Source of the DNA: Armatimonadota bacterium
Lineage (GTDB): Bacteria; Armatimonadota; Fimbriimonadia; Fimbriimonadales; Fimbriimonadaceae
Direction of reading: 5' to 3'
Assembly (NCBI GenBank): GCA_020161505.1
Contig: JAIUNY010000002.1
Location: forward strand, 1-64,000
Length of the DNA: 64,000 nt
Shown: in pieces, positions 1-15,116 of the stretch
How the letters are laid out: each line of letters starts with the position of its first letter
Numbering within the stretch: the stretch's first letter is position 1
Notes under the pieces: generated by a model
The model's database searches: none
Told to the model about the DNA's origin: nothing
The model's input: the letters and a program-made list of their open reading frames with translations, nothing else
Translations under genes and position numbers: made by a program

Positions 1-180
1 CCCTCACTCCGCACTCGGAATGAAGGCCCCGATCCCCTTTCTCAAGGAATACCAAAACCAATGAACACCCAACTCACCCCTCCTTCGGTGTCCACAGAAA
101 AGGGCTCACTCCAATTTAGCCCCCCCCACCCCCCTCAAAGTGTGCGTGCGCAGAGACGAATTTCCTGTACACTAACGAAC

Positions 181-579
181 ATGAAGTTAGGGTTGATTTA
201 TCTCGTAGTTGCAAGCTTCATCACGACTGGCACGGCTCTGTTTCAGTCTCCACCAAATGTTCAAGGTGGCTGTCCTGCAACGAAAGGTACAAAGCAGCTG
301 GCTGGTAAGGAGTGGAATCCGTTTCTCCCGCTATGTGAAAGCCCCTGTAATCAGACGTTGGTTGGTAGCTACACGTCATCGGTATGGTCTGCTCCATGCT
401 ACTTCGGTACATCTCCGAATGGGTCAGAGTTTGAGCTGTGGGAGATAGACGTATATCGTACAACTTGCCAGCATGGCAAGATGCACTATGACTGCCAGAG
501 TAAAATGGCTAGCCCGTATACGTGCGCGCTCCATCGCTCATACACATGTCCATCGAGTACTTGCGCCCCGGTATATTGA
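181..579 (+). CDS. Cys-rich small exported protein (cassette A, gene 1)
   Basis: This encodes a 132-residue protein of no family I recognise. Residues 1-20 form a hydrophobic signal peptide (MKLGLIYLVVASF...), so it should be exported. The mature part has nine Cys (31, 52, 56, 73, 96, 105, 115, 123, 128), which suggests disulfides. W69, C73, C105, C115, C123 and C128 fall at exactly the same residue numbers as in the protein at 14712-15116. The final block has the form C-x9-C-x7-C-P-x2-T-C in both. A longer reading from position 61 would put a Pro/Ser-rich stretch ahead of the signal peptide, so I start at 181. The stop is 5 bases before a pseudopilin gene. Local GC is clearly below that of the neighbouring housekeeping genes. 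Confidence 0.75.
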   Translation: MKLGLIYLVVASFITTGTALFQSPPNVQGGCPATKGTKQLAGKEWNPFLPLCESPCNQTLVGSYTSSVWSAPCYFGTSPNGSEFELWEIDVYRTTCQHGKMHYDCQSKMASPYTCALHRSYTCPSSTCAPVY

Positions 580-584
580 CACAG

Positions 585-1181
585 ATGAGGCACAGAGCGT
601 TTACCTTGGTTGAGGTAATCGCTGTCGCCGCGATTCTGATCATAATGCTGGGCCTGATTGTACCAGTGTTCTCGAATGCTAACGATAGAGCTCATCTCGC
701 AACGGATACTGCGAATTTGCGTCAGGTGGGGCTAGGCATGAGCTTGTACCTTGAGAGTTCAGAGAGCACAGTTAGGGAGCTTGCAGTGTTTGCAAATACC
801 TTCGACAGCCCAGAACTTCTGCAAAGCAAGAGAGACTCCACAGCAAGTGGTTATGCTGTGGAGTATGCAAATCTCGTGCTAAAGCGCTTTGACCCTAGCC
901 ACAAGTATCTACTCATCAAGCCCAGAGTATCACTGCTTGGTGCCGATGCCTTCGGCTTGCACACAGAGGAGTGCGTGCTGAATGATCCAAGTGCTGGCTG
1001 GGCAATTATCGCCGAAGGGATGCGCCCTGGAGAAATCTTGCCAAAACCACGCAATCGATATTTGAGACTTAACAACGATACGTCTGTCGTCAATGAGTCA
1101 GCACCGTTACGCTCGAAAGGGACTGGATACGAACTGCACCTGCAGGACATTTTCTGCCCTGCGCTACGAAAATCGGAATAG
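585..1181 (+). CDS. type IV pilin-like / pseudopilin protein (cassette A, gene 2)
   Basis: This 198-residue protein begins with a prepilin signal: a short basic leader (MRHRA), then FTLVEV and a hydrophobic helix to about residue 29. The conserved Glu is the fifth mature residue (E10). Such proteins are cleaved and N-methylated by prepilin peptidase and assemble as minor pilins or pseudopilins. The helix is followed by LRQVG and a globular part with a late NDTSVV segment, reminiscent of the DGSV-type segment in the pseudopilin at 14086-14736. I start at 585 because the upstream in-frame start at 522 would place 21 residues before the leader and overlap the previous gene. It lies 5 bases after the Cys-rich gene and 3 bases before the membrane protein gene, which indicates one operon. 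Confidence 0.85.
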   Translation: MRHRAFTLVEVIAVAAILIIMLGLIVPVFSNANDRAHLATDTANLRQVGLGMSLYLESSESTVRELAVFANTFDSPELLQSKRDSTASGYAVEYANLVLKRFDPSHKYLLIKPRVSLLGADAFGLHTEECVLNDPSAGWAIIAEGMRPGEILPKPRNRYLRLNNDTSVVNESAPLRSKGTGYELHLQDIFCPALRKSE

Positions 1182-1184
1182 GCT

Positions 1185-1595
1185 ATGAAGCACATATCAC
1201 CCCTCGTGACGCATCTCGGAGTTGTCTTTGCTGCAATCCTGACTCTTCCGATGGTGCCCTTAGTGCTTCAAGGGAGGTTCGAGTTCTTCTTTGTCCCGGC
1301 ATTGCAGGCGCTAGCTGTCGGCTTTGTGTCTGCCTGGCTCACGGAAAGAAGTCGACTATCCAAAGTGCCAGCCTCGTTAGCATTTGCTGGCCTCGTTGCT
1401 GCGTTTCAGTTGGCTATTGCGCTAGTGGGATTGCTATTCAAGCCGAGTCTCTATTATCTAATGGGTGAACCAGTGTACTGGGGTGCTTTGGCCCTCGGGG
1501 CGGGATTTTCTTGGGCTTCCGGGCTCCTGGGCTGGCTGGTCTTGTGGCTTCACAATGGGCGGAAGCCTGTGCTGACATTTGGGTTAAGTAGGTAG
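1185..1595 (+). CDS. four-helix membrane protein (cassette A, gene 3)
   Basis: This 136-residue hydrophobic protein has about four predicted membrane helices (near residues 8-28, 35-52, 63-85 and 94-122) and no motif of a known family. It closes the cassette with only 3 bases after the pseudopilin gene. The protein in the same position of cassette B (13703-14110, 135 residues) has similar length and topology, and both carry a basic segment around SAWLTERSR or LLTWAMVRSR after the second helix. That resemblance is loose. A role as a membrane partner of the pseudopilin is inference from gene order alone. Confidence 0.7.
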   Translation: MKHISPLVTHLGVVFAAILTLPMVPLVLQGRFEFFFVPALQALAVGFVSAWLTERSRLSKVPASLAFAGLVAAFQLAIALVGLLFKPSLYYLMGEPVYWGALALGAGFSWASGLLGWLVLWLHNGRKPVLTFGLSR

Positions 1596-1751
1596 ATGTT
1601 CAGCGGATGGCTTACAACTCAAGAGCTTGTTGAAACCAGGATCTCTGATTCAATGACAGACGACAGTTCACGGGTATTTTGTGCGATTAGGAGGCCCACC
1701 ACTGAGGGCTGGTATCGAGTAGCCGAATTCTCTCCCAGTAGAAAGCTTTGA
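1596..1751 (+). CDS. 51-residue ORF abutting the cassette A membrane gene
   Basis: An ATG begins on the base after the preceding stop and opens 51 codons ending at TGA (1749-1751). The product starts MFSGWLTTQELVETRISD and ends AEFSPSRKL. It is soluble, with Trp, Tyr and Cys, and looks more protein-like than random read-through. It shares no motif with a family I know. It could be a small fourth gene of the cassette or the remnant of a longer gene cut off at its 3' end. I see no counterpart beside cassette B. Confidence 0.4.
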   Translation: MFSGWLTTQELVETRISDSMTDDSSRVFCAIRRPTTEGWYRVAEFSPSRKL

Positions 1752-1763
1752 TCAGCCAACCTC

Positions 1764-2738
1764 CTAAACGGCCGCAAGTGCGCCCTTGGCGGCGACGGAT
1801 CGGTATGCCGCCAGAGCGACACGCGACGCCCAAATTCCATCTTCAACGGTTGCCATGGGAGGGGTGCCATGAAGGCAGGCCCGCACGAAATCATCGACCA
1901 TGAGCTGGTCCGCGTTGCTGCCGCTGCCGTAAAGACGAAGTCCATTTTCTTGCGAAACCCCAACGCCTTGAACGAAGAGATCCGCCTCGATGACGCCTTT
2001 GGTACCCACGACATTCAGCGCGACGTTGCCCCACGTGCGGTAGCCCTTCGGCTTGTTCCAGCTTGAGTCGAGCGTGGCAAAGCGACCACTCGCAAACTCG
2101 ATGGTGACCATCGCTGTGTCTTCCCAGCTTTGACCGTAATGGTTGTGGCCGATTTGTGCTTGAACCGCAACGGGGTCTTCGCCGAGGAGGCGTCGGAGGA
2201 GATCGGCGACGTGAACGACATGGTCGATCATGGCTCCACCGCCGGAGAGGCTGGGATCGACAAACCATCCAAACGGACAGGTTCCCTGATTCGTGGCGCA
2301 AACGCTGAGCACCGTGCCGATTTCCTGATTGGCCAGCTTGCCCATAAGATGGGTGAAGTTTGGTGAATGAGGGCAAGGGAAAGCCGTGGCGAAGACTTTG
2401 TCTTTGCCGGCAATCGCGGACCGGATGTCGTCAATCGCTGACTCCTCGCCGGCAATCGGCTTCTCGCAGAGGACATGGCACCCCGCATCGGCAGCGGCAG
2501 AAATGTGGTTCGCGTGCTTCAGATTCTCGCTGCAGATGACCGCAGCGTCAGTCTCCTTGAGGAGGGCTGCTTGATCGGCAAAGAACGGGATGCCCCTTTG
2601 CTCCGCAAACGCTTTGCCCCGAGCGGCATCATCATCCCACAAACCCACCACTTCCGATTCCGGATTGGCTTGACTACACGCAACAAAGCTCGGGGCGTGA
2701 ACGTGGGCGGCGCTAAGGATTCCGATGCGCAAAGGCAT
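1764..2738 (-). CDS. Gfo/Idh/MocA family NAD(P)-dependent oxidoreductase
   Basis: This 324-residue protein has the two-domain layout of the family. The Rossmann start is RIGILSAAHVHAPSF, with A-A-H in place of the usual GxGxxG turn. The signature CEKPI lies at residues 91-95, with the EKP Lys typical of sugar and inositol dehydrogenases. A C-terminal alpha/beta domain contains GGGAMIDHVVH, which carries the expected catalytic-region Asp and His. The substrate is probably a sugar or cyclitol but cannot be named. It shares strand with the isochorismatase-like gene upstream (30-base gap) and may be cotranscribed with it. Its stop is 12 bases from the small ORF converging from the left. Confidence 0.85.
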   Translation of the reverse strand: MPLRIGILSAAHVHAPSFVACSQANPESEVVGLWDDDAARGKAFAEQRGIPFFADQAALLKETDAAVICSENLKHANHISAAADAGCHVLCEKPIAGEESAIDDIRSAIAGKDKVFATAFPCPHSPNFTHLMGKLANQEIGTVLSVCATNQGTCPFGWFVDPSLSGGGAMIDHVVHVADLLRRLLGEDPVAVQAQIGHNHYGQSWEDTAMVTIEFASGRFATLDSSWNKPKGYRTWGNVALNVVGTKGVIEADLFVQGVGVSQENGLRLYGSGSNADQLMVDDFVRACLHGTPPMATVEDGIWASRVALAAYRSVAAKGALAAV

Positions 2739-2768
2739 GGTTCGATTATGCCCGCTGGCTTGGGTGAA

Positions 2769-3320
2769 CTACCCGGCGGTCTCTTTGACGATCTGCAAGA
2801 TGTCTCGAAATTGCGGATCCTCGGCATCTTGGAGCCATTCGTAGACGACCGATTCGCTGTGGACGATCCACGCTCCGGCATCGCTGAGGCGCTGCCAGGT
2901 GATGTCATTGGCCTCTTGGGTACGGCTGGTGACGGCGTCTTTCACCACAAACACCTCGAAGTCGGCCGCGAGGAGATCCAGGGCAGTTTGGGTGACGCAG
3001 ATATGACTCTCGACGCCGACGAGAACGACTTGGGGGAGGTCTGCTTCGAGGAGTTTTGCGGCAAGTTCGTCGGAACCAAATGCGGAGAAGGCGGTCTTCG
3101 GGAAGGCGGGTTCGCTCAGAAGTGCGGCAAGTTCGGGGTTGGTGCCTCCCATCTTGTCGGGGACTTGCTCCGTGGCGAGGATCGGGACGGCAAGAGCCTT
3201 GGCAACTTGGGCGACGAAGTGGGCGCGCTTTTCGACCGCCTCAATTCCCAGGCAGACTCGGGAGAACTTGGGCTGCATGTCGATGATGAGAAGAAGGCTC
3301 TCGCCGCGCAGGAGTCGCAT
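2769..3320 (-). CDS. isochorismatase-like cysteine hydrolase
   Basis: This 183-residue protein belongs to the isochorismatase-like hydrolase superfamily. The catalytic triad is visible as D14 (LLIIDMQ), K75 (AFPKTAFS) and C108 (SHICVTQTA). The compact size and the ESHICVTQTA stretch resemble the ISOC/YcaC-like branch, whose substrates are poorly known, rather than true isochorismatases. An in-frame start 48 bases upstream would add a Trp/Gly/Asn-rich extension that lacks family character, so I start at MRLLRGES. It is divergent from the LD-carboxypeptidase gene, with 81 bases between. Confidence 0.8.
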   Translation of the reverse strand: MRLLRGESLLLIIDMQPKFSRVCLGIEAVEKRAHFVAQVAKALAVPILATEQVPDKMGGTNPELAALLSEPAFPKTAFSAFGSDELAAKLLEADLPQVVLVGVESHICVTQTALDLLAADFEVFVVKDAVTSRTQEANDITWQRLSDAGAWIVHSESVVYEWLQDAEDPQFRDILQIVKETAG

Positions 3321-3401
3321 GGTGTGGAGTGTACGCTGATTCCCTGCTCCCGCCCATGACGGGATCAACCTTCAACGCGAGACTTCGGTAAAGTTCCCGG
3401 T

Positions 3402-4331
3402 ATGACGCCGATCAAGCCGCGCCGATTGGGGCCGGGGAGCCATATTCGCATCGTTTCGCCCGCCAGCAACATCACTCCGGAACAAACCGAGGACGGGATC
3501 AAGTGGCTTGAGAACGAGGGCTACCAGGTGACGCTGGGCGAGAACGTCTACACGAAGTTCCATTATCTCGCGGGGACCGACGAGCAGCGAGCGGGGGATT
3601 TCATGGCGGCGATCGACGATCCGAGCGTGGATGCGATCATGTGCTCTCGCGGTGGATACGGCTGCGCGCGCCTCATGCCGATGCTCGACTTTGACAAAAT
3701 CGCTGCCTCGCGCAAGGCCATCTGTGGATTCAGTGATGTCACGACGCTTCACCTCGCCCAGCAAAAACGCGGCGCGGTGAGTCTGCACGCGCCCATGCTT
3801 ATCACTCTGAGCGTGGAGCGCGAGCCGTGGGTGATGGAGAGTCTGAGCAACTGTCTCAAGGGCGAAAATCCTATTCCCGAGACCGCGAAGAAAGGCGAAA
3901 CCTTGGTTGGTGGATCTGCGGAAGGCGTGGTCGAAGGCGGCTGCCTGTGCCTCCTGACGGACAGCTTCCACACCGATTATGAGATCGATTGGTCTGGAAA
4001 GATTGTGGTGATTGAAGACGTCGATGAGAACCCGCACAGGATCGACGCGATGTTCACGAATCTGGTGAACAACGGATATCTGGCGGGAGCCGCCGGGATC
4101 GTGATCGGCGAGATGACAGGCACCGATGAGCGGTCGGACGAGAAGATTGGCCGTTGGCCCTGGAGGGAGATCATTGCGGATCGAATCGCTCCGCTCGGTA
4201 TTCCCGCCATTGTGAACTTCCCGTTTGGGCACATGAAAACGATGCTCTCGCTCCCGCTTGGCGTGAGGGCAAGGCTGGACGCGGATTCTGGTACTCTTAC
4301 CTATCTGGAGCCGCATATGGCGGACGCCTGA
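3402..4331 (+). CDS. ldcA: LD-carboxypeptidase (peptidase family S66)
   Basis: This enzyme removes the terminal D-alanine from murein tetrapeptides during peptidoglycan recycling. At 309 residues it has the usual family length. The Ser-Glu-His triad can be placed: S111 in GFSDVT, E205 in VVIEDVDENPHRID and H277 in FPFGHMK. The preceding SRGGYG stretch at residues 82-87 is also typical. No signal peptide is seen, which suits the cytoplasmic members. The gene stands alone on its strand between a divergent hydrolase and the glycosidase-like gene that starts 35 bases downstream. Confidence 0.9.
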   Translation: MTPIKPRRLGPGSHIRIVSPASNITPEQTEDGIKWLENEGYQVTLGENVYTKFHYLAGTDEQRAGDFMAAIDDPSVDAIMCSRGGYGCARLMPMLDFDKIAASRKAICGFSDVTTLHLAQQKRGAVSLHAPMLITLSVEREPWVMESLSNCLKGENPIPETAKKGETLVGGSAEGVVEGGCLCLLTDSFHTDYEIDWSGKIVVIEDVDENPHRIDAMFTNLVNNGYLAGAAGIVIGEMTGTDERSDEKIGRWPWREIIADRIAPLGIPAIVNFPFGHMKTMLSLPLGVRARLDADSGTLTYLEPHMADA

Positions 4332-4366
4332 ACGCATAAGACCGAATGGTCTTTTTTGGTGTGAGC

Positions 4367-5797
4367 ATGAACAAGTGGACAGTCAATCGCGCATGGAGTC
4401 TGGTGGCCCTCGGGCTGGGGCTGTTGAGTCAAGCCACCGCGCAGGCTCAGAGTTGGGAGCGCCTCGTTGCCCCAGGTCTGACGTACCGCATGGAGGTTGA
4501 CCTCGGTCTGCCGCGTGTGATCCACGCTCTTCGTTACACGCCGGGCGTTGGGAACATCTCCTCACGACCCGAACTTGCGGGAGGCGCGGTCTTTGTGCCC
4601 GATGATGCGACGAAGGGCCGCGAAGCAGTGACGGCCACCATGGCTCGAACCGAGGCCCTCGCTGGAATCAACGCTGACTTTTTCCCCTGGACGGGCGACC
4701 CCTTGGGTGCGATGGTGCGCAACGGCGAAATCATCAGCACGCCATATAAGGGTCGATCCGTGTTTGCCTGGGGCAACAAATATAGTTTCAGCGGAGTGGT
4801 TGAGGCCCGCGGCTTCTTCACCGATGGCATCACGCGGATCAACCTTCAGGGTGTGAATGAAGAGTGCCTCACGAACAGTGCCGTGCTCTTCACGTCGGCA
4901 GCCGGGATGGCGGTAGCCAAAGAAGCCTCGCTTCATGCGGTTCTCGAACCGACGGGTCCGCTCCAAATGGGCAAGAAAGTCACGGCGAAGATTCGCGAAC
5001 TTGTCCCAGGGGTGAACCGGGTGGCGGTGGAACAGGGCACGATGGTTCTCACGGCCCACGGCGACCAAGCCGCTCTGCTGAGCCAAATTGGTCGTGGCGG
5101 CAACGTCGAGTTCCAAGTGGATTTCACCGGCCTGGATGCAGCGAAGACCACTCACATCATCGCAGGGGGGCCGCTCCTGGTGAGCAACGGCAAGCTGAAT
5201 GTCAACAACGTTGCCGAAAAGTTCTCGGCGGATTTCACCACGAAGCGTCATCCGCGCACCGCGATCGGGGCGACCAAAGAAGGCGACATCTGGCTCGTCG
5301 TCATCGACGGCCGCCAGCTGATGAGTCGAGGCGCCACGTTGGAGGAAGTCGGGCTGATCATGCAGCGACTGGGGTGCGTTCACGCGATCAATCTGGATGG
5401 CGGGGGAAGCTCCACGCTTGCCCTGACGGGAATGGTGGTGAATCGACCGAGCGACGGAACAGAACGACCGGTCTCAAATGGCGTTTTCCTTTTCGGAGAG
5501 CTCCCCGCGCAGCCGGTTGATGCGAACCTGGTCATCAAGGGCGTGCCCCGATTGAACCAAGGTGAAAGCGCGACTTTTGCCGTCATCAACAGTCGAGGCG
5601 AGCGATTGCCCCAGCGCGATGTGATCTGGTCGGCGCAAGGTGCGGCCTGGATCGATCAAGCCGGGGTGCTGCGGGCTCATGCCAACGGAAAGGCAACGAT
5701 CACCGCGTGGGTTTCCGGCGTCAAGGTCAGCGTGGAAATCACGGTGGATGCAGTCGCCCCGACGCCTCCGGCGAATAGCGGCGGCGGTCGAAACTAG
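4367..5797 (+). CDS. exported phosphodiester glycosidase-like protein (NAGPA/DUF2233 type) with Big-like C-terminus
   Basis: The 476-residue product starts with a signal peptide (MNKWTVNRAWSLVALGLGLL...TAQAQ). The middle shows the phosphodiester N-acetylglucosaminidase-type fold: AGINADFF early, IAGGPLLV, then RTAIGATKEGDIWLVVIDGR and NLDGGGSSTL, which holds the usual Asp-Gly-Gly-Gly site. The last 90 residues read as a bacterial Ig-like (Big_2-like) domain ending in a Gly/Asn tail. Homologues in bacteria act on cell-surface polymers, but the substrate here is unknown. An upstream in-frame ATG at 4346 adds seven residues and is less likely. Confidence 0.85.
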   Translation: MNKWTVNRAWSLVALGLGLLSQATAQAQSWERLVAPGLTYRMEVDLGLPRVIHALRYTPGVGNISSRPELAGGAVFVPDDATKGREAVTATMARTEALAGINADFFPWTGDPLGAMVRNGEIISTPYKGRSVFAWGNKYSFSGVVEARGFFTDGITRINLQGVNEECLTNSAVLFTSAAGMAVAKEASLHAVLEPTGPLQMGKKVTAKIRELVPGVNRVAVEQGTMVLTAHGDQAALLSQIGRGGNVEFQVDFTGLDAAKTTHIIAGGPLLVSNGKLNVNNVAEKFSADFTTKRHPRTAIGATKEGDIWLVVIDGRQLMSRGATLEEVGLIMQRLGCVHAINLDGGGSSTLALTGMVVNRPSDGTERPVSNGVFLFGELPAQPVDANLVIKGVPRLNQGESATFAVINSRGERLPQRDVIWSAQGAAWIDQAGVLRAHANGKATITAWVSGVKVSVEITVDAVAPTPPANSGGGRN

Positions 5798-5903
5798 GAC
5801 CAAAGCCCGCTGGATTTGAACCTCCACGATTTCTTGGCATCTTCCAGATTGAAATACCGGTAAGACAGTCCAAGCGCGGAATCTTCGCGTTTGGACTCTC
5901 CTT

Positions 5904-8900
5904 ATGCTCTTTACGTCACTCGCAGCCATCGCCTTGGGTCAAAGCCTTGGCGAAGAAGTTCGATTGATGCGCTACCCAGATATCAGCGGGAACCAGGTCG
6001 TGTTTACGTACGCGTCCGATCTCTGGCTTGCTGATCTCAACGGGGGAGCGGCACGTCGACTCACCTCCCATCCGGGAATCGAACAACACGCGAAGTTCTC
6101 GCCCGACGGCAAATGGATCGCCTTTTCTGGTCAATACGATGGGGGAATGGATGTTTACAAGATCCCCGTCACGGGTGGAACCCCGACTCGTCTGACCTAC
6201 GAAAACGGTACCGAATTCGTCCGGGAGTGGACGAACGACGGCAAAAAGGTCGCCTACGCCTCAAACTACGGCAACCACACCACACGCATGTCGCGACTGT
6301 GGTTTGTCGATGCTGATGGCGGCATGCCGGAGCGCACCGCGGTTCAGGAGTCGTTCGATGTCAGCTTCTCGCCCGACGGAAGCCAGATGGCGTTCACCCG
6401 GGCGAACAGCCACGTTTTTAACTGGCGACGCTATCGCGGCGGAACCCAGGGGCGCATTGCGTTCTGGGATTTTGCGAAGAAGACTTACACAGAAATCCCG
6501 ACCGGTCGCGAGCAAAGCTACTTCCCCATGTGGGTCGGCGACAAGGTGTTTTTCATCAGCGACAAAAATCAGCTGACGCAGAATCTCTACAGCTACGACA
6601 CCAAATCGAAAAAGAGCACCCAGCTCACCAAGTTCGATGACGGCGACATCCGCTGGCCTTCAACGGATGGCAAGACGATCGTGTTCGAGCGCAATCTGCG
6701 CCTCTTCTCGATGGACATTGCCACGGGCGCGATCAAGCAACTCGATCCTCGCGTGTCGGGTGACGATGTGGCGATGCGTCCTCGGTTTGTCCCCGGAAGC
6801 AACTCGATCGGCGGGATGGCTTTGAGCCCGAGCGGCAAGCGACTGGTCGTCGAAGCTCGCGGTGAAGTCTTCAGCGTTCCGGCTCGAAGTGGGGAAACCC
6901 GCAACATGAGCCGAACCTCGGGGGCTCGGGAGAATCAGCTCAGCTGGAGCAACGATGGTCAGTTCGTGTACTACATGACCGACAAGTCGGGTGAGTGGCA
7001 ACTGGTTCGCCAGCCTCAAATGGGCGGCGCGGAGGAGGTCATCAAGCTTCCGACCACGACTCCGGTTTCGACGTACAGCCTGGCGCCGAACGGCGATCTT
7101 GTGGCGTACCGAACGATCGACTTTGCGTGGCACATCTTTGATATCAAGACTGGTAAGTCTACAAAGGTCTTCCAGGACATGGGAGCCCCGCGAAATATTG
7201 ACTGGTCAGCCGACAGCAAGTGGCTCACCTATGCAAAGACTCTCCCGAACCTGATGCAAGGCATCATGCTCTACGATGTCACGTCGGGCAAGGAGCACCA
7301 AGTCACGAGCGGCGTCTTTATGGACAATGCGCCGAGCTTTGACCTGACGGGCAAGTACCTCTATTTCATCTCGGGTCGAGACTATGCGCCTGGATTTGGG
7401 GTTCAGGGAGCCCACCTGGAGCAAGGCGAGATTGACCGGGTTTACATGGCCACTCTGAGTGCCGACACGGCGAACCCTCTGGCTCCGGAAGAGGATGAAG
7501 AGCCGGTGAAGGCATCGGGCGATGCTCCGGCAGCCGCTCCGGCTGCACCATCGGGAGACGGAATGAAGGTGGATGTCGAAGGGCTCGAAAGCCGAGTCAT
7601 CGCGCTTCCTTATCCGGTTTCGAGCTACGGCGGGGTGATCGGCGTCCGGGATGGCGTGATCGTTTCCACGGGATCCGGCGAACTGAGCCTCTTCAATCTC
7701 CGCGCCCGCGTGCCACAGACGATTATGCCGACCCCGCAAGTGGGTGTCTTCAACGCGGATCGAACGAAGATTGCTTACCTTTTGGGTGGACAGATCTCGA
7801 TCACCGATGTGCGACCGGGCGTCCAAGTGGGTGCGGGGCGCGTGGATACCAGCGCGGTCGGCCACGTGGTTGATCCTCGCCAGGAGTTCAAGCAGATCTT
7901 CCGAGATGCTTGGCGCTACAACCGCGATCAGTTCTACGACAAGGATATGCTCGGGCTCGATTGGAACGCGATCGGGAAGAAGTACGAGGCCATGCTGCCT
8001 TACGCCGGTGATCGAAGTGACCTGGACTACATCCTTGGTCAGTTGATCGGCGAACTTGGCACGGGTCACGCCTACAACACTCCGGCTCCTGCAGGAAGCG
8101 ACCCCATGTCGCAACCAGCTGGATTCCTTGGTGCAGACTTGGTGAACGAAGGTGGCAAGGTGAAGATGTCCAAGATCTACCGAGGCCCGAGCTATCTGCC
8201 AACCGGCCGAGGCCCCTTGGGCGCCCTGGGCGTCAACGTGAAGGATGGCGAGTTCATCCTCGCGATCAACGGTCAGCCGGTGACGGCTGAGACGGGTGTG
8301 ACTCCTCACCTCATCGGCAAAATCAACAAGCGCGTGACGCTCACTGTCAACGACAAGCCGACGATGGACGGGGCACGCACCGTGAATGTCGTTCCGACGG
8401 CCAATGAGTCGCAGCTTCGCTACCAAACCTGGGTGGATGAACGACGAAATCTCGTTCACAAGCTCAGCGACGGCAAGATCGGCTACATGCACGTCCCCGA
8501 CACCAGCGTCATGGGAATCATCATGTTTGTCCGCGGCTTCTACTCGGAGCAAGACAAGCAGGCATGGGTGATCGATGAGCGCTACAACGGTGGCGGCTTC
8601 ATTCCGACCTTCTTCATCGAGTATCTGCAACGCGAAGCCAACAACACGTTCGGCCCGCGCCACGGTGCCAACGTGAACCTGCCGAGCGCTCTGAACGGAC
8701 CGAAGGCGATGCTGATCAACGAACACGCGGGATCGGGCGGCGACCTGTTGCCGTATCTGTTCAAAAAGTCTGGTCTTGGGCCGCTCATCGGCACCCGAAC
8801 CTGGGGCGGTCTGGTGGGGATCCAAGGAACCTACGGGCTCCTCGGCGGCAGCGGCGTGACCGCGCCAGGCTTTGGAATCTACGATCCGCAAACCGGAAAG

Positions 8901-9077
8901 TGGATCGCCGAGAACACCGGCGTCGATCCGGACATCTTCGTGGATGACACTCCCGAAGTGGCCGCGAAGGGTCAGGATGTCCAACTTGAGCGAGCCGTTG
9001 AATATCTCAAGGGCGAACTCAAGAAGACGAAGCCCCTTCAGCCGCGCCCTGCGGCACCAAAAGTCGGCGGGAATTAA
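5904..9077 (+). CDS. tricorn-type serine protease
   Basis: This 1057-residue protein has the tricorn layout. A six-bladed WD40-like propeller comes first (RYPDISGNQVVFTYASDLW; FSPDGKWIAFSGQYDG). A second propeller follows, then a C1 helical domain, a PDZ domain (near GALGVNVKDGEFILAINGQPV) and an S41-like catalytic domain. Candidate catalytic residues are H722 (GTGHAY), S944 (AGSGGD) and E1003 (AENTGVDPD). Tricorn degrades peptides downstream of larger proteases. The N-terminus (MLFTSLAAIALGQSLGEE) looks like a short signal peptide, so it may act in the periplasm. An acidic/Ala/Pro linker at about 530-555 separates the propellers from the rest. A strong terminator follows. Confidence 0.9.
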   Translation: MLFTSLAAIALGQSLGEEVRLMRYPDISGNQVVFTYASDLWLADLNGGAARRLTSHPGIEQHAKFSPDGKWIAFSGQYDGGMDVYKIPVTGGTPTRLTYENGTEFVREWTNDGKKVAYASNYGNHTTRMSRLWFVDADGGMPERTAVQESFDVSFSPDGSQMAFTRANSHVFNWRRYRGGTQGRIAFWDFAKKTYTEIPTGREQSYFPMWVGDKVFFISDKNQLTQNLYSYDTKSKKSTQLTKFDDGDIRWPSTDGKTIVFERNLRLFSMDIATGAIKQLDPRVSGDDVAMRPRFVPGSNSIGGMALSPSGKRLVVEARGEVFSVPARSGETRNMSRTSGARENQLSWSNDGQFVYYMTDKSGEWQLVRQPQMGGAEEVIKLPTTTPVSTYSLAPNGDLVAYRTIDFAWHIFDIKTGKSTKVFQDMGAPRNIDWSADSKWLTYAKTLPNLMQGIMLYDVTSGKEHQVTSGVFMDNAPSFDLTGKYLYFISGRDYAPGFGVQGAHLEQGEIDRVYMATLSADTANPLAPEEDEEPVKASGDAPAAAPAAPSGDGMKVDVEGLESRVIALPYPVSSYGGVIGVRDGVIVSTGSGELSLFNLRARVPQTIMPTPQVGVFNADRTKIAYLLGGQISITDVRPGVQVGAGRVDTSAVGHVVDPRQEFKQIFRDAWRYNRDQFYDKDMLGLDWNAIGKKYEAMLPYAGDRSDLDYILGQLIGELGTGHAYNTPAPAGSDPMSQPAGFLGADLVNEGGKVKMSKIYRGPSYLPTGRGPLGALGVNVKDGEFILAINGQPVTAETGVTPHLIGKINKRVTLTVNDKPTMDGARTVNVVPTANESQLRYQTWVDERRNLVHKLSDGKIGYMHVPDTSVMGIIMFVRGFYSEQDKQAWVIDERYNGGGFIPTFFIEYLQREANNTFGPRHGANVNLPSALNGPKAMLINEHAGSGGDLLPYLFKKSGLGPLIGTRTWGGLVGIQGTYGLLGGSGVTAPGFGIYDPQTGKWIAENTGVDPDIFVDDTPEVAAKGQDVQLERAVEYLKGELKKTKPLQPRPAAPKVGGN

Positions 9078-9101
9078 CTTTCTGCCCTCAAAAAGTTAGA
9101 G

Positions 9102-9141
9102 AAAGCCTCCGATGAAACATTCGGAGGCTTTCCGTTTTTTT
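9102..9141 (+). terminator. rho-independent terminator after the tricorn gene
   Basis: A perfect 11-base inverted repeat (AAAGCCTCCGA at 9102-9112 with TCGGAGGCTTT at 9121-9131) encloses an 8-base loop. Seven T's follow at 9135-9141. It separates the tricorn gene from the PilB-type gene. Confidence 0.93.
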
Positions 9142-9192
9142 ACGGTGCCCCGCGAGTTGAGTTCACAACGCAACTTTGAGAAGGACTAACCA

Positions 9193-12100
9193 ATGGGCGA
9201 AAGATTTAGCTGGGACAAGCTCCTGCGACGCGGCAAGCAGGACGAGGACAACACGATCAATATCACGCCGAACGAGGAGCCGATGGCTCCCGTTGCGTCG
9301 TTGAAATCGACGACCCCCGTTGCTCAAAGCGTTCCGCTTGCGAAAGCGTCTCCGGACACGATGGCTCCGCCTCCGATGGCGCAAGAACCAACCGCTCCGA
9401 AGGCTCCGCTGGTGATCGAGTGGAATCAGTATCAGCAAATCGCTGAGTCGGCCCAGCCTCCGGTCGAAGCGGCAGCGGCTCCCGCGCCGCCGACCGTCGC
9501 TCCGCCTGTTCCTGCATCGCATCCGGTGGCGCAAGCTCCTGCAGGTCACGAAACCTCAGAGGTCGCTCATGCCTTTTGGAACAAGATGGGCAGCGAAACC
9601 GCTGAAGCTCTGCACAGTACGCCAGCCGCCGTCCCTCCTGCTCCCGCCGCTGGGATCAACTTGGGCTGGGACGATGTGGAACTCACGCCTGCCGAACGCG
9701 CGGCGGGTAAGACCGGCGAACTTCCCCCTGTCGCCTCCATTCCAACCGCTCCGGAGATTCCTACTCCGGTTCAACCCCTGATTTCTGAAATCCCGCCTGC
9801 CGTCGCTCCCATGACGCCCGCCCCCGCTGAGGAGGCTCCGGCCGGAGTGGTCGAGGCGGACATCTTCCAACCGATTCAGGTTGAGCTCTTGGGTGCCTCG
9901 ACTCCCGAGTGGGCTGCCCCTGCTCCGGTGGAGGCAGCTATCCCCGCTCCTCTTGCTCCGGAATCCATTGCTCCCGCGAGCGATTTTCCCGGTTTCGGAA
10001 CCTCCGAGGTTCCCCCGGCTCCGGCGGCCGAAGTCGAAGTACCTCCCACCGTCGAGCCGCTGGTGGAAGCCACCTCCGCCCCGGTTTCAGAACTCAAGCC
10101 CGCCAGTGAAGGCCTGCAGCCGATAGAAGTGGGCGAGCCACGATGGCTTGGAACCCCAAGCTCTCATAGCGAAGAAAAGCCTCGGCTGATGGGCTTCGGT
10201 GAGGGCACAAGGGTGCTGGGAAGCACTTCTGAACCGATCAGTCAAGAAACGTCTAGCCCGGCGGAACCCGCGCCTGTGGAGGGAACCCGGGTGACGGAGG
10301 CCCCGGTGGCGAATCCTTGGGCCTCTCTCACAAAGCCCGTCGAAACACCGACGGAGGCTCCTGCGGCGTCTGCCTGGAATCTGCCACCCGTGACCGCTCC
10401 AGCTCCCGAGGTACCGGTGAGCGAGGAAGCCCCGCAAACTTCCGCCTGGAATCTCCCCCCGGTGACGCCGGTGGTGTCGGAAGTGCCGACTCTGGAAATT
10501 CTCCCGACTGAACCAGCAGAAGCGGCCCCCGCGCCGGTCGAGCCTCCTGCTTCTGAGGTTACTCTGGAAGCGCCGATCGCCTCGGCCTGGAACATGCCTC
10601 CGGTCGCAGAACCAGCCCAAGAGGAGACGATCAACGAATTGCCACCGATTGCCGCCCCGATCGAGGAGACAACCTCCGCGTGGGGTCAAATCGACACGGC
10701 TCCAGCAGCAGAGGCCCCGACGATTGAGGCCCCGGCTGCGGAAGCCCCCTTCTCCTGGTCTCAGATCAGCGAAGCTGCGCCCGTGATGCCGGCACCGATC
10801 ATGGTGGAGGAGCCCTTGGTGGCCGAACTCCCTCCGGTCGCCGAGCCGATCGCCCCGGCTTCGGACGCCCCTCCGGCATCCATGGCCCCGAGCGTGCCGC
10901 CGGTTTTCGAGTCTCCGGGTGAGGTGACCTCTTCCGAAACAAAAGCTCCGGAAGTGCTGGCCGAGGCTTCGCAGGTTCCTGCGAACGAGGTTCCGTCGAT
11001 CTTCACGACGCCTCCGGCCGCTGAGGTTCCTGCCCCAGAGGCTCCAGCCGCATCGAGCGACGTGCCGAGCATCTTCACGACGCCTCCGGCATCGGAAACG
11101 TCCGCTGCACCCCCCAGCGATCCATCGGCGATTCCACCCGCCTACGCCAAGCGTTCCGCTGATGACCTCTCCGTCCAGAAGGCCCGCGACAATCGACTTG
11201 GCGATCTGCTGGTCGGCAACAAACTCATCACGCAGAAGCAGCTGGATCGTGCTCTGGAGCGACAGAAGGAGACCAACGAGCGGTTGGGGCAGATTCTGAT
11301 CGCTATGCAAACGATGAGCGAGAAGCGCTTGCTTCAAGTGCTCTCTGCGCAAAAAGGCGTGAGTCCGTGGCACCTGGAGACCGATGCCCCGACCCAGGAA
11401 GCCGTGGCCCTCGTTCCTGAGCAGATGTGCCGCATCTTCCAGGTGATTCCGGTTGCGATTCGGGGTGACCTCCTCCTCCTCGCCATGCGCGACACCGAGG
11501 ATATCGAGGCCATTGAAGCGATTCGCAACCACACCAAGCGACGCATCGAACCCGTTCTCGCCGATGAAGCCCGTCTGGCTTACACCATCGACAAATCGTT
11601 CGGAATTGCCGAGACCCGGCGTCTCGCGGCAATGGATGAACTCGTCGGTGAAGCGCTGCACGGAGTGGACAATTCTCGTCCGCTTGGTACCCAGGAACGC
11701 GCGATCCTGAGCGAGGAAGACACGCGTCCCGTCGTGGGTCTGGTCAATCAGATCATCGAGGACGGAATCCGGATGCGGGCGAGTGACGTCCACATCGAGC
11801 CCGGCTACGAGAAGATCGAGATCCGCTATCGACTGGATGGTCGCCTGACCACCGTCCGTGATCTCCCGATCGAGCTCTTGCCGATGCTGGTGGCTCGGGT
11901 CAAGATTCTCTCCGAACTGGATATCGTCGAATACCGTATGCCTCAGGACGGGCGCATCACGGCCCAATTCGGCCCTCATGTGGTCGATCTGCGAGTGAGC
12001 GTGCTCCCGAACTACCACGGCCCCCGGGTGGTGCTGCGGATTCTCGACAAGTCGGTCGGTCTGAAGAAGCTGACCGATCTTGGATTCGAAGACCGGAACT

Positions 12101-12936
12101 TGAGCCTGTTCAAGGACTTGGTGGCGAAGCCCTACGGCTTGTTTCTCGTCACAGGCCCGACAGGATCGGGCAAGACGACGACCCTCTATTCCGCGCTCAA
12201 CGAGCTTCGCGATACCGCGACGAACATCATGACGTGCGAAGATCCGGTGGAATACGACCTTGCCGGAATCAATCAGTCGCAGGTGAACGAGAAAGTTGGA
12301 TTGACGTTCGCTCACCAGCTTCGCGCGATTCTTCGCCAGGATCCCGACGTGGTGTTGGTCGGAGAAATCCGGGACAAGGAGACGGCTGAGACCGCGATTC
12401 GTGCCGCGATGACCGGTCACATGGTGCTCTCGACGCTCCACTGCAACGATGCGCCTGGCGCGATTCCCCGCTTGCTGGATATGGGCGTGGATCCGTACCT
12501 GCTGAGTACGGCGTTGGTCGGCACGATGAGCCAGCGATTGGTGCGCGTCCTGTGTTCGCACTGCAAGACGGAAGACGATGCAACCGCTGAGGAAACCGAG
12601 ACGATGGCCAAGCTGTTTGGTGTGCCGGATGTGAAGAAGATCTGGCGAGCCAACGGCTGCGATGAGTGCTACAACACGGGATACAAGGGCCGCATGGCGG
12701 TTCACGAGATCCTGCCGGTCGCTGAGGAGATCGCCCACCTGATTGCGGAGCGGGCTCCGATGGAGACTCTGCGCACGCGAGCCGGTTACTATGGCTATCT
12801 GCCGATGCAGCAAGATGCAGCGGCCCGGGTTCTGCGCGGCGAAACGACGTTGGAAGAAGCCAAGAGGCTGATCTCCTTCGACACGTTCGAGAAGCTCGAT
12901 GCTCCTCGTTCGCTGGAGTGGAAGTCGGCGAGCTAA
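9193..12936 (+). CDS. pilB: PilB/GspE-type secretion ATPase with a long disordered N-terminal region
   Basis: The C-terminal half is a hexameric ATPase that drives type IV pilus extension or type II secretion. A MshEN-like domain begins near residue 667 (NRLGDLLVGNKLI). Walker A (GPTGSGKT) is at 988-995, and Walker B (DVVLVGEIRD) begins at 1052. The zinc tetracysteine is C1121, C1124, C1156 and C1159 (CSHC and CDEC). The family is usually 500-600 residues. Here about 650 Pro/Ala/Glu-rich residues precede it, with repeated motifs such as SAWNLPPV and VPSIFTTPPA. The extreme N-terminus (MGERFSWDKLLRRGKQDED) is charged and aromatic. An AAGGA Shine-Dalgarno lies upstream. It sits between the two pseudopilin cassettes. 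PilB rather than GspE is not certain. Confidence 0.92.
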   Translation: MGERFSWDKLLRRGKQDEDNTINITPNEEPMAPVASLKSTTPVAQSVPLAKASPDTMAPPPMAQEPTAPKAPLVIEWNQYQQIAESAQPPVEAAAAPAPPTVAPPVPASHPVAQAPAGHETSEVAHAFWNKMGSETAEALHSTPAAVPPAPAAGINLGWDDVELTPAERAAGKTGELPPVASIPTAPEIPTPVQPLISEIPPAVAPMTPAPAEEAPAGVVEADIFQPIQVELLGASTPEWAAPAPVEAAIPAPLAPESIAPASDFPGFGTSEVPPAPAAEVEVPPTVEPLVEATSAPVSELKPASEGLQPIEVGEPRWLGTPSSHSEEKPRLMGFGEGTRVLGSTSEPISQETSSPAEPAPVEGTRVTEAPVANPWASLTKPVETPTEAPAASAWNLPPVTAPAPEVPVSEEAPQTSAWNLPPVTPVVSEVPTLEILPTEPAEAAPAPVEPPASEVTLEAPIASAWNMPPVAEPAQEETINELPPIAAPIEETTSAWGQIDTAPAAEAPTIEAPAAEAPFSWSQISEAAPVMPAPIMVEEPLVAELPPVAEPIAPASDAPPASMAPSVPPVFESPGEVTSSETKAPEVLAEASQVPANEVPSIFTTPPAAEVPAPEAPAASSDVPSIFTTPPASETSAAPPSDPSAIPPAYAKRSADDLSVQKARDNRLGDLLVGNKLITQKQLDRALERQKETNERLGQILIAMQTMSEKRLLQVLSAQKGVSPWHLETDAPTQEAVALVPEQMCRIFQVIPVAIRGDLLLLAMRDTEDIEAIEAIRNHTKRRIEPVLADEARLAYTIDKSFGIAETRRLAAMDELVGEALHGVDNSRPLGTQERAILSEEDTRPVVGLVNQIIEDGIRMRASDVHIEPGYEKIEIRYRLDGRLTTVRDLPIELLPMLVARVKILSELDIVEYRMPQDGRITAQFGPHVVDLRVSVLPNYHGPRVVLRILDKSVGLKKLTDLGFEDRNLSLFKDLVAKPYGLFLVTGPTGSGKTTTLYSALNELRDTATNIMTCEDPVEYDLAGINQSQVNEKVGLTFAHQLRAILRQDPDVVLVGEIRDKETAETAIRAAMTGHMVLSTLHCNDAPGAIPRLLDMGVDPYLLSTALVGTMSQRLVRVLCSHCKTEDDATAEETETMAKLFGVPDVKKIWRANGCDECYNTGYKGRMAVHEILPVAEEIAHLIAERAPMETLRTRAGYYGYLPMQQDAAARVLRGETTLEEAKRLISFDTFEKLDAPRSLEWKSAS

Positions 12937-12960
12937 ATTAAGGCAAGCTCAGCGAGGAAT

Positions 12961-13001
12961 ACCGCCTCTCGGCTCGATGAGCCGAGGGGCGGTTTTGTTT
13001 T
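12961..13001 (+). terminator. rho-independent terminator after the PilB-type gene
   Basis: A 15-base stem with one mismatch (ACCGCCTCTCGGCTC at 12961-12975 with 12979-12993) closes a 3-base loop. TTTTGTTTTGG follows. Confidence 0.92.
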
Positions 13002-13020
13002 GGTCGGGTAGCCTCCGGGC

Positions 13021-13746
13021 ATGACTCTGCTCGCGGCGGTGGCGATCTTAGCGGCGATGATCGCGAGCGTGGCGGGGTTTGGGATCGGGAGCCTGCTGAC
13101 GCCCGCGCTGGCGATTCAAACCGGGATGGGGGTGGCGGTGGCGGCGGTTTCGCTGCCGCACTTTGTCGCGACGGTGGTGCGGGCGTGGAGGCTGCGCGAC
13201 GAGATCGATTGGTCTTTTTTGCGTACGTTTGGCGTGACGAGCGCGGTGGGGAGCCTGGCGGGAGCAGGGATCGCGGCAATTTGGGGAGCGTCGTGGCTGG
13301 GGTTTATCCTTGGTGGCCTGATGCTCTTTGTTGGCTCCATGGGGTTGCTCGGCCTGACCTCGAAGTTCGTTCTGCCGGAGAAGTGGACGCTGCTGGGGGG
13401 CCTGGTCAGCGGGGTGTTTGGCGGCCTAGTGGGGAACCAAGGCGGAGTGAGAAGCGCGGCGATGCTGGGGAGCGACCTGAAGAAAGAAGCCTTTGTCGCC
13501 ACGGCCACCGCCACCGGCGTGATCGTGGATCTGGCGCGGCTGCCGGTCTATCTCGCCGTGTATGCGCGAGAGCTTCCGGCATTGTGGCGGGAGATCGGGG
13601 TGATGACAGTCGGGGTGGTTATCGGCACCTTCCTGGGCGTCCCGGTGCTGAAGCGTATCCCGGAGGCGACATTCCGCAAGGTCGTTTCCGGGATTATTTT
13701 GTTTATTGGACTATTCGTTCTTTATCGTCACGTTTCGTCTGCTTGA
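13021..13746 (+). CDS. TSUP (TauE/SafE) family permease
   Basis: This 241-residue integral membrane protein has about seven or eight hydrophobic segments and the two-repeat character of the TSUP family. The first repeat has GFGIGSLLTPAL near the N-terminus. The second has GLVSGVFGGLVGNQGGVRSAAML, the usual Gly-rich re-entrant motif. Family members export or import sulfite, sulfonates or organic acids, and the substrate here cannot be read from sequence. Its 3' end overlaps the convergent gene at 13703-14110 by 44 bases. Confidence 0.85.
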   Translation: MTLLAAVAILAAMIASVAGFGIGSLLTPALAIQTGMGVAVAAVSLPHFVATVVRAWRLRDEIDWSFLRTFGVTSAVGSLAGAGIAAIWGASWLGFILGGLMLFVGSMGLLGLTSKFVLPEKWTLLGGLVSGVFGGLVGNQGGVRSAAMLGSDLKKEAFVATATATGVIVDLARLPVYLAVYARELPALWREIGVMTVGVVIGTFLGVPVLKRIPEATFRKVVSGIILFIGLFVLYRHVSSA

Positions 13747-14110
13747 GGAAGAGCCAAAATGCCGTGGCCGAGCCCGCGACGACTGCAACCACCGACGTGA
13801 GAATGAAGATCAATGCGTCACGTCGCACATCCACACCTGGCGGTGCGGACTGAGCAGTGCGCACCGCACTCAGCCCCTCTGAAGCCAGGCTCACGAGAAT
13901 CGCGGTTCCGATAACCGCCACCCAGGTTCGTGAACGAACCATCGCCCAAGTCAACAAAGCACTCAACACGGCGAGTTTAGGCATCATCATCAAGACATAG
14001 CCCAGTGCGTCCGTCCGAAATCGGATGGGATAGGTCGCGTAGCGCACTGCAACGACCCATACGCATATACAGAGGAAAGACAGAATTAACGCCCGCGCTG
14101 TTCTGTCCAA
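13703..14110 (-). CDS. four-helix membrane protein (cassette B, gene 3)
   Basis: This 135-residue protein has about four membrane helices and a basic C-terminus (KQTKRDDKERIVQ). It begins with TTG, supported by GAGGAA eight bases upstream. The start lies inside the end of the pseudopilin gene (25-base overlap), so the two are probably translationally coupled. Length, topology and position in the cassette match the protein at 1185-1595. No known family was recognised. The 3' end runs 44 bases into the convergent TSUP gene. Confidence 0.7.
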   Translation of the reverse strand: MDRTARALILSFLCICVWVVAVRYATYPIRFRTDALGYVLMMMPKLAVLSALLTWAMVRSRTWVAVIGTAILVSLASEGLSAVRTAQSAPPGVDVRRDALIFILTSVVAVVAGSATAFWLFLKQTKRDDKERIVQ

Positions 14111-14736
14111 TTCTTGTATTCCTCGGTTTCGGTGAAGAAGAGCAGACTCGGTGTTCTGCCACCCTGACCAGACTCATCCTGAATCGTGTCCTTATGGGGA
14201 AACCTCTGCACGCTTCCATCATAAAGGAGCCTTCGATAGAAGCCTTTACTGAAGATCAGGGGATTTCCGGGCAGCGATAGCTCACTGATGCTCAAATCGA
14301 CGAGCCATCCGCCATCAGGAGCTTGTTCGGAAAATCGCCTACAGTTAGCCTGTACGCTCCATTCAAGAAACCCCGTAGGAGTCATTTTGTAGGGCAGCTG
14401 TGGCGCACCTCGCGCCATCCCTCGGTACGAATCTCGGACAACCTCTTCGGCAAGACCTTGCGGAAATGGATCCCTAGCAAATCCCAAGAGTCGCGAATCA
14501 ACCTGACCTCGAAGCACTAGAACGCTCGGCGAAAGTGGATACTCTCCAAAGTCGCTCCTATACATTTCTGCTGCCTGCCCCAATTGCCGGAGACTTTGCC
14601 GAGCCGATGAATCTTGGGCACTGGACTTGGACCTCGAAAATCCAACGAACACTAGACTAGCAAGAATCATGATCACCCCAATGACGACCAGAAGCTCGAA
14701 AAGCGTGAATCCTAGTCTGGAGTACTGACGAAGCAC
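14086..14736 (-). CDS. type IV pilin-like / pseudopilin protein (cassette B, gene 2)
   Basis: This 216-residue protein has a textbook prepilin start: a short basic leader to G9, cleavage before F10 (GFTLFELLVVIGV), Glu at mature position 5 (E14), then a hydrophobic helix. SLRQLGQAAEMYRSDFGEYPLS follows in the place where GspG/GspH-like pseudopilins have their first helix and loop. A YDGSV segment lies near residue 180. The start codon is GTG at 14736, inside the end of the Cys-rich gene. The protein is the positional and partly sequence-level counterpart of the pseudopilin at 585-1181. Confidence 0.87.
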   Translation of the reverse strand: MLRQYSRLGFTLFELLVVIGVIMILASLVFVGFSRSKSSAQDSSARQSLRQLGQAAEMYRSDFGEYPLSPSVLVLRGQVDSRLLGFARDPFPQGLAEEVVRDSYRGMARGAPQLPYKMTPTGFLEWSVQANCRRFSEQAPDGGWLVDLSISELSLPGNPLIFSKGFYRRLLYDGSVQRFPHKDTIQDESGQGGRTPSLLFFTETEEYKNWTEQRGR

Positions 14737-15116
14737 GTATCACCTGGGCAACTTTGTGGGTAGTAACTATGGCAAATGGGATTTGGATTGTCGGCGGCAT
14801 AACAAACCCACCGACTTCCATTTTCATAGATTAATGTCTTCTTGTAAAAATTCTGTGCCTCGAAAGGTTGCGTGGGAGGCTGTGGCTCACCTTCATTGCA
14901 TGCCCAAGTCCATTTGATAGCGATTGTGACTGGCCCAAAAAGTTGGGTTCGATCCAAATTTCCGCAATAAACGGTCGGCTCGTCTTCGAATTCTGCCGCA
15001 GAATGCTCTCTCGCTTGCTCCCTTTGCTCGATCTGCTCGTAAGTTAACTCGCCGGTGGCAGAGTAGGAACTGACTCCTGCGAGTACAACAATTGATAATA
15101 GTTCATTCACCTTCAT
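14712..15116 (-). CDS. Cys-rich small exported protein (cassette B, gene 1)
   Basis: This 134-residue protein starts with a signal-like segment (MKVNELLSIVVLAGVSSYSATG), then an acidic/Gln helix, then a Cys-containing domain. Cys are at 51, 73, 105, 115, 123 and 128. The last five share residue numbers with the protein at 181-579, as does W69. The closing pattern C-x9-C-x7-C-P-x2-T-C is identical. Outside these positions identity is low, so the two are anciently diverged or fast evolving. Its end overlaps the pseudopilin start by 25 bases. Hand-counted GC over 14821-14880 is 24 of 60, much lower than in flanking genes. Confidence 0.75.
   Translation of the reverse strand: MKVNELLSIVVLAGVSSYSATGELTYEQIEQREQAREHSAAEFEDEPTVYCGNLDRTQLFGPVTIAIKWTWACNEGEPQPPTQPFEAQNFYKKTLIYENGSRWVCYAADNPNPICHSYYPQSCPGDTCFVSTPD

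What the first reader, a model, noticed from the sequence alone, without database searches (positions are those of the whole stretch)
181..15116. Two paralogous cassettes: Cys-rich exported protein, pseudopilin, four-helix membrane protein
Genes at 181-1595 (plus) and 15116-13703 (minus) have the same order and similar lengths: 132/134, 198/216 and 136/135 residues. In both, spacing is a few bases or overlapping. The first proteins are exported and Cys-rich, the second carry prepilin cleavage signals, and the third have about four membrane helices. A PilB/GspE-type ATPase gene lies between the cassettes. This suggests a small module in which a dedicated pseudopilin and membrane partner handle a disulfide-rich cargo or tip protein. 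I know of no described system with this layout. The link to the ATPase is by position only.
Basis: partly seen in the sequence, partly recalled or inferred. Interest (0 to 1): 0.75.

Follow-up and report, generated by a model that had tools for sequence, protein, structure and literature searches.

The report
Repeated secreted-protein–pseudopilin–membrane-protein cassette
The two gene triplets are members of an undescribed, many-copy module of the bacterial family Fimbriimonadaceae that pairs a disulfide-rich exported protein with its own dedicated pilin-like subunit and a small membrane protein, which offers a first handle on why these bacteria carry some 70 pilin-like genes.

Summary
Both triplets belong to one cassette family: exported Cys-rich protein, dedicated pseudopilin, 3-4-helix membrane protein. 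The genome holds seven cassettes. The family totals 32 loci in 18 genomes of one family (Fimbriimonadaceae), plus one named record, with no convincing copy elsewhere in 291 phylum genomes. Every Cys-rich gene is followed by such a pseudopilin. Held-out profiles show that the Cys-rich proteins and pseudopilins of both window cassettes are homologous to those of other species, and that cassette pseudopilins are distinct from the genome's roughly 59 other pilins. The membrane protein is conserved only in position and topology. Cys-rich and pseudopilin relatedness is correlated (Mantel r 0.59). In one species pair all three genes are under purifying selection. Cysteine covariation predicts a disulfide-bonded hairpin fold without Pfam or PDB match. 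The PilB-like ATPase between the cassettes is not linked to cassettes in other species. Most likely, each pseudopilin joins the cell's core T2SS or type IV pilus machine as a minor subunit and carries or displays its own Cys-rich protein (inference, about 0.5). A secreted toxin with membrane immunity protein is the main rival. One copy lies in the cultured type strain Fimbriimonas ginsengisoli.

The parts
181..579 (+). Cassette 1, gene 1: exported Cys-rich protein (132 aa; 9 Cys, 8 of them from the first framework Cys on; C-terminal CPSSTC)
   Evidence: Translation; held-out family profile E 3.8e-6; no Pfam, NCBIfam or PDB family
585..1181 (+). Cassette 1, gene 2: dedicated pseudopilin (198 aa, AFTLVE prepilin signal)
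   Evidence: held-out cassette-pilin profile E 7e-11 versus more than 0.02 for 59 other pilins
1185..1595 (+). Cassette 1, gene 3: small membrane protein, 3-4 predicted helices (136 aa)
   Evidence: topology and position conserved, sequence homology not demonstrable
14712..15116 (-). Cassette 2, gene 1: exported Cys-rich protein (134 aa, 6 Cys; C-terminal CPGDTC)
   Evidence: held-out profile E 1.2e-7; same-locus relative in another species beside the M48 peptidase gene
14086..14736 (-). Cassette 2, gene 2: dedicated pseudopilin (216 aa, GFTLFE prepilin signal, GTG start)
   Evidence: four nearest relatives in its own genome all lie in cassettes; held-out profile E 1.3e-29
13703..14110 (-). 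Cassette 2, gene 3: small membrane protein, 4 predicted helices (135 aa, TTG start)
1..113 (+). 3' end of an IS3-type transposase gene and element end, 5' of cassette 1 (not part of the module; contig starts here)
   Evidence: 113 bp identical to the IS3 end just 5' of another cassette, L021

Best explanation
Each cassette is a self-contained accessory module for a filament machine that the cell makes from other genes. Gene 1 goes to the periplasm by the Sec pathway and folds into a small disulfide-bonded domain. Gene 2 is a dedicated minor pseudopilin processed by the prepilin peptidase. It is thought to join the growing pseudopilus or pilus of the core T2SS or type IV pilus machine through its conserved N-terminal helix, and to bind its own gene-1 partner with its variable globular domain. 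The filament then exports the Cys-rich protein through the secretin or displays it at the tip. Gene 3 is thought to hold or stage the pseudopilin-cargo pair in the inner membrane. Several cassettes in one genome would let one machine carry several different tips or cargoes. Shown: gene content, homology of genes 1 and 2, correlated divergence of genes 1 and 2, purifying selection in one species pair, cysteine covariation, presence of T2SS and T4P operons. Inferred: binding, filament entry, export or display, and the role of gene 3.
For: Seven cassettes in the own genome. 33 of 33 Cys-rich genes have an adjacent cassette-type pseudopilin; gene 3 is found wherever the downstream DNA is held. The C-terminal profile of other species' cassette pilins picks exactly the seven own cassette pilins out of 66. 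Cys-rich and pilin similarity matrices correlate, r=0.59, 0 of 5,000 permutations; membrane protein against Cys-rich 0.44 and against pilin 0.38. dN/dS is 0.04-0.06 for all three genes between G002 and G004. Cys2 and the Cys before the NG turn co-occur 19/0/0/9, and one Cys lies on one or the other side of that turn (11 and 16 members, one exception). The genome has a GspF-G-H-I-J-K-L-M...D operon and a PilM-N-O-Q-B-C type operon.
Against: No interaction or localisation data. The Cys-rich model is uninformative (pLDDT 44) and no complex was modelled. The pilin model is weak (pLDDT 65) and its best PDB match, type IV pilin PilA4, is not significant (E 1.2). The membrane partner diverges too fast to prove homology. 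Cassettes are not next to the core operons, so use of those machines is inferred. Most genomes carry one or no cassette, so the module is dispensable.
Confidence: 0.5

Rival explanations
1. A contact- or secretion-dependent toxin with immunity protein: gene 1 is a disulfide-rich antibacterial protein, gene 2 its dedicated pseudopilin delivery subunit, gene 3 a four-helix immunity protein.
For: Several divergent copies per genome, patchy distribution and GC below the surrounding DNA in 30 of 31 loci. Gene 3 diverges fastest. Some cassettes have a second membrane gene behind the first, one with an in-frame stop (L109, L067, L173), as expected of spare immunity genes.
Against: In the one close species pair all three genes are under strong purifying selection, with no sign of an arms race. 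No PADLOC family match for the six window proteins and no Pfam toxin family for 19 Cys-rich members. Shiga-toxin model hits for one member at E 0.0036 are judged chance. No orphan gene-1 copies away from a pilin were found.
Confidence: 0.18
2. A self-contained surface fibre or adhesin: the pseudopilin forms its own short filament capped by the Cys-rich protein, with gene 3 as platform protein, independent of the core machines.
For: Compact transferable unit; every cassette has its own membrane protein. F. ginsengisoli has fimbriae and was described as non-motile, so attachment was proposed (PMC4072686).
Against: No ATPase or secretin in any cassette; gene 3 is only about 130 aa and shares no Pfam match with GspF/PilC or other platform proteins.
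Confidence: 0.15
3. A secreted peptide signal or redox partner with gene 3 as receptor or membrane enzyme, the pseudopilin serving a sensing role.
For: Gene 3 is an integral membrane protein with variable sequence. A related arrangement, L026, has a membrane-anchored protein with a CPTC motif beside a pilin and a Cys-rich protein.
Against: Gene 3 has no conserved catalytic residues and no family match.
Confidence: 0.1
4. Passenger genes drifting on mobile DNA without cellular function.
For: Low GC; IS3 copies directly 5' of two cassettes, one apparently missing the start of its signal peptide (L021); broken copies L066 and L104.
Against: dN/dS 0.04-0.06 at a shared locus in two species, even cysteine numbers and perfect cysteine covariation, same gene order across genera.
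Confidence: 0.04

Closest known systems
PilY1 / minor pilin clusters of type IVa pili (Myxococcus xanthus; PMC7541494)
   Same: Several clusters in one genome, each coding minor pilins with a secreted partner protein that serves as priming and tip complex on a shared core machine
   Different: [quoted passage not shown] Here there is a ~110-residue Cys-rich protein, one pilin and a membrane protein; no PilY1 match in this genome (weak negative because no control genome rang)
T2SS pseudopilus tip complex (XcpU-X / GspH-K; PMC6211770)
   Same: Minor pseudopilins on a filament that pushes folded exoproteins through a secretin; the genome has such an operon
   Different: Cassette pilins are scattered away from the operon and are paired one-to-one with a putative cargo; they match GspG/GspH models only at the N-terminal helix and far below cut-offs
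Verru_Chthon cassette (NCBIfam TIGR02596, TIGR02600)
   Same: Named repeated cassette including a prepilin-type protein, in another phylum (description from memory and from the model name)
   Different: Window pilin B scores 18.8 bits against a cut-off of 70, over the N-terminus only; no protein A match in this genome (weak negative)
Expanded PulG-type (COG2165) pseudopilins of Fimbriimonas and other Armatimonadota
   Same: Same N-terminal region and general layout; 79 such genes reported in F. ginsengisoli (PMC4072686), about 70 here
   Different: Cassette pilins form a separate C-terminal family with fixed partners

Membership tests
Type IV pilin / pseudopilin superfamily (gene 2) | Class III signal: short basic leader, [GA]FTLxE, ~20-residue hydrophobic helix | tested here: met
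   Sequence of both proteins and of the other cassettes; Pfam N_methyl 17.8 and 21.1 bits, just under the 21.2 cut-off; N-terminal helix in the model
Type IV pilin / pseudopilin superfamily (gene 2) | Globular C-terminal pilin fold | tested here: inconclusive
   pLDDT 65; best PDB match is a type IV pilin but E 1.2
T2SS major pseudopilin GspG | Score above TIGR01710 cut-off | tested here: not met
   22.0 and 37.8 bits against 88.85
PilY1 / minor pilin priming module | PilY1 protein plus FimU, PilV, PilW, PilX | tested here: not met
   No PilY1 Pfam match in genome (no positive control); one pilin per cassette
PilY1 / minor pilin priming module | Complex of partner and pilin at the filament tip | not testable with these tools
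   Needs pull-down or cryo-ET
Verru_Chthon cassette | Proteins A and D above model cut-offs | tested here: not met
   A absent (no positive control); D 18.8 bits against 70
Toxin-immunity module | Known toxin or immunity domain | tested here: not met
   No Pfam or PADLOC matches of significance
Toxin-immunity module | Gene 1 toxic, gene 3 protective | not testable with these tools
   Needs expression assay

The most novel reading that the evidence does not exclude
A new class of exchangeable 'one cargo, one pseudopilin' units: one shared filament machine is re-tipped by many scattered cassettes, each bringing its own disulfide-rich effector or adhesin and a membrane escort, which would explain part of the unexplained pilin expansion in Armatimonadota and possibly other phyla.
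Probability: 0.35. Interest if true: 0.8.

Novelty: new variant of a known kind. Interest (0 to 1): 0.62.

Why it matters
Armatimonadota carry dozens of pilin-like genes per genome without known roles (79 counted in F. ginsengisoli, PMC4072686). Here a defined subset has fixed partners, a new protein family with a predicted disulfide pattern, and a copy in a cultured type strain. If the pseudopilins are cargo- or tip-specific adaptors, substrate choice by type IV filament machines would be modular and transferable, which can be tested directly.

Tried and rejected
ATPase link: rejected, since long PilB-like homologues lie far from cassettes in the other species and are present where cassettes are absent. 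Phage origin: no relatives in viral contigs. Flanking repeats or an obvious insertion mechanism: upstream and downstream DNA of the seven cassettes shares only the IS3 end of two copies; only one cassette sits beside tRNA genes. Structure of the Cys-rich protein with five sequences: failed (pLDDT 44). Pilin fold search: not significant. Search outside the family: one hit with three stops inside (G281), rejected. Literature: no paper found that holds the searched pilin and Cys-rich or Fimbriimonadaceae terms together. A first automatic anchoring of the cysteine pattern misplaced several rows and was replaced by anchors set by hand.

Full report
Setting. The window is the first 64 kb of contig C11 of a 3.14 Mb genome in 38 contigs. 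A third relative, G128, has a single contig of 5,231,762 bp, exactly the published length of Fimbriimonas ginsengisoli Gsoil 348 (PMC4072686). The family is therefore taken to be Fimbriimonadaceae, Armatimonadota.

Observation. The six genes are as described. Direct BLASTP between the two cassettes gives no significant similarity for genes 1 and 3 and E 0.013 for gene 2, so the word paralogous needed testing. A search of the genome with pseudopilin B gave 70 pilin matches. Only four besides itself aligned over most of the protein, and all four proved to be in the same three-gene arrangement. A Cys-rich profile then found exactly seven cassettes in the genome (the seventh on contig C3).

Held-out tests. 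A profile built only from other species' Cys-rich proteins ranks the seven own ones first among 2,824 ORFs from the fetched stretches (E 1.4e-16 to 3.8e-6; next 0.077). A profile built from other species' cassette pilins, without the N-terminal helix, ranks the seven own cassette pilins first among 66 pilins (E 1.6e-31 to 7e-11; next 0.024). Genes 1 and 2 are thus homologous across cassettes, and gene 2 is a dedicated family. The same test fails for gene 3, which is conserved in length, position and 3-4 predicted helices only. Helix counts come from a simple hydropathy threshold.

Distribution. Searching 291 phylum genomes gave credible matches only in one family: 32 loci in 18 genomes, with seven copies here, five in G014, three in G007 and one or two elsewhere. 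A named record (L173, CRAIB_MAG79) adds one. Every member has a pseudopilin directly behind it, or behind an inserted membrane gene in two cases (L162, L113). Gene 3 is present in every case where the contig continues. Three same-genus genomes (G001, G005, G006) gave no match.

Movement and age. At the M48 peptidase gene next to window cassette 2, one other species (G007) has the related cassette at the same place, while in the six other same-genus genomes the M48 gene is followed by unrelated genes and no cassette. Subtypes shared between species (L019-L157 in different genera, L020-L103, L021-L101) are 34-43% identical in gene 1, often closer than copies within a genome, and showed no shared flanking genes in the DNA held. 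So cassettes are old, divergent lineages that move or are lost as units. Their GC lies below the surrounding DNA in 30 of 31 loci. No recombinase belongs to them; an IS3-type element ends just 5' of two of the seven.

Joint evolution and selection. Similarity matrices of genes 1 and 2 correlate with r=0.59 (0 of 5,000 permutations as high), gene 3 with gene 1 at 0.44 and with gene 2 at 0.38. Permutations do not remove shared species history, so this shows joint inheritance, not contact. Between G002 and G004 dN/dS is 0.06, 0.04 and 0.06 for genes 1, 2 and 3, within the range of flanking genes.

Gene 1. A signal peptide-like start is present in most members. From the first conserved cysteine the count is 8 in most and 6 or 10 in several. 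Nearly all end in CPxx(S/T)C or a close variant. In 28 members, anchored by hand, the second cysteine and the cysteine before the conserved NG turn are both present (19) or both absent (9), never one alone. One further cysteine lies either 4-5 residues before that position or just behind the turn, almost never both. This is what disulfide partners and cross-strand neighbours in a beta-hairpin would show (inference; the sequences are related, so the Fisher values overstate independence). No Pfam or PDB sequence relative exists. One member touches Shiga toxin A models at E 0.0036; without support from the other 18 members I treat this as chance.

Machinery. The genome encodes a T2SS-type operon on C27 (GspF, G, H, K, PilN/PilO-like L and M, secretin with GspD N0) and a T4P-type operon on C1, with four secretins in all (C1 assignments rest on gene order and the secretin and ATPase matches). 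The ATPase in the window has MshEN and T2SSE domains behind a roughly 650-residue low-complexity extension. Same-genus genomes with and without cassettes have such long ATPases, in G002 and G004 more than a megabase from the cassette. The position between the window cassettes is therefore accidental.

Mechanism. Best reading: accessory minor-pseudopilin modules, one partner each, served by the common machine. The analogy is with PilY1/minor pilin clusters (PMC7541494) and with the T2SS tip complex (PMC6211770), but membership in either is not met. A toxin-immunity reading remains open, because gene 3 diverges fastest and is sometimes followed by a second membrane gene. Neither contact, export nor toxicity has been shown.

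Noticed in passing
L021 (G000:C29:20000-28500), 3373-5977: A cassette with an IS3-type element ending about 14 bp 5' of the Cys-rich gene; the protein lacks a full signal peptide compared with its relative L101, so this copy may be truncated by the insertion.
   Followed up: partly
L026 (G000:C24:500-7000), about 1900-3300 minus strand: Variant arrangement: membrane-anchored protein with a CPTC motif, pilin, then a Cys-rich exported protein; no Pfam match for the first or last.
   Followed up: partly
L066 (G000:C2:33000-39500), about 2700-3680 minus strand: A probable eighth cassette whose Cys-rich gene appears frameshifted: the CPPAVC tail lies in another frame.
   Followed up: partly
L067 (G000:C3:58800-63000), 3' of the membrane gene: A second small membrane-protein gene follows, interrupted by an in-frame stop; similar second membrane genes follow the cassettes in L109 and L173.
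   Followed up: partly
L156 (G014:C1:1199500-1209500): Two related cassettes in tandem, the clearest recent duplication.
   Followed up: partly
window 9193-12936: PilB-like ATPase with MshEN (c-di-GMP binding type) domain and an N-terminal extension of about 650 residues rich in Pro, Ala and Glu; long forms also occur in the other genomes of the genus.
   Followed up: partly
whole genome G000: About 70 prepilin-type genes, most coding 280-360 residue proteins scattered as single genes; their function is unknown.
   Followed up: no
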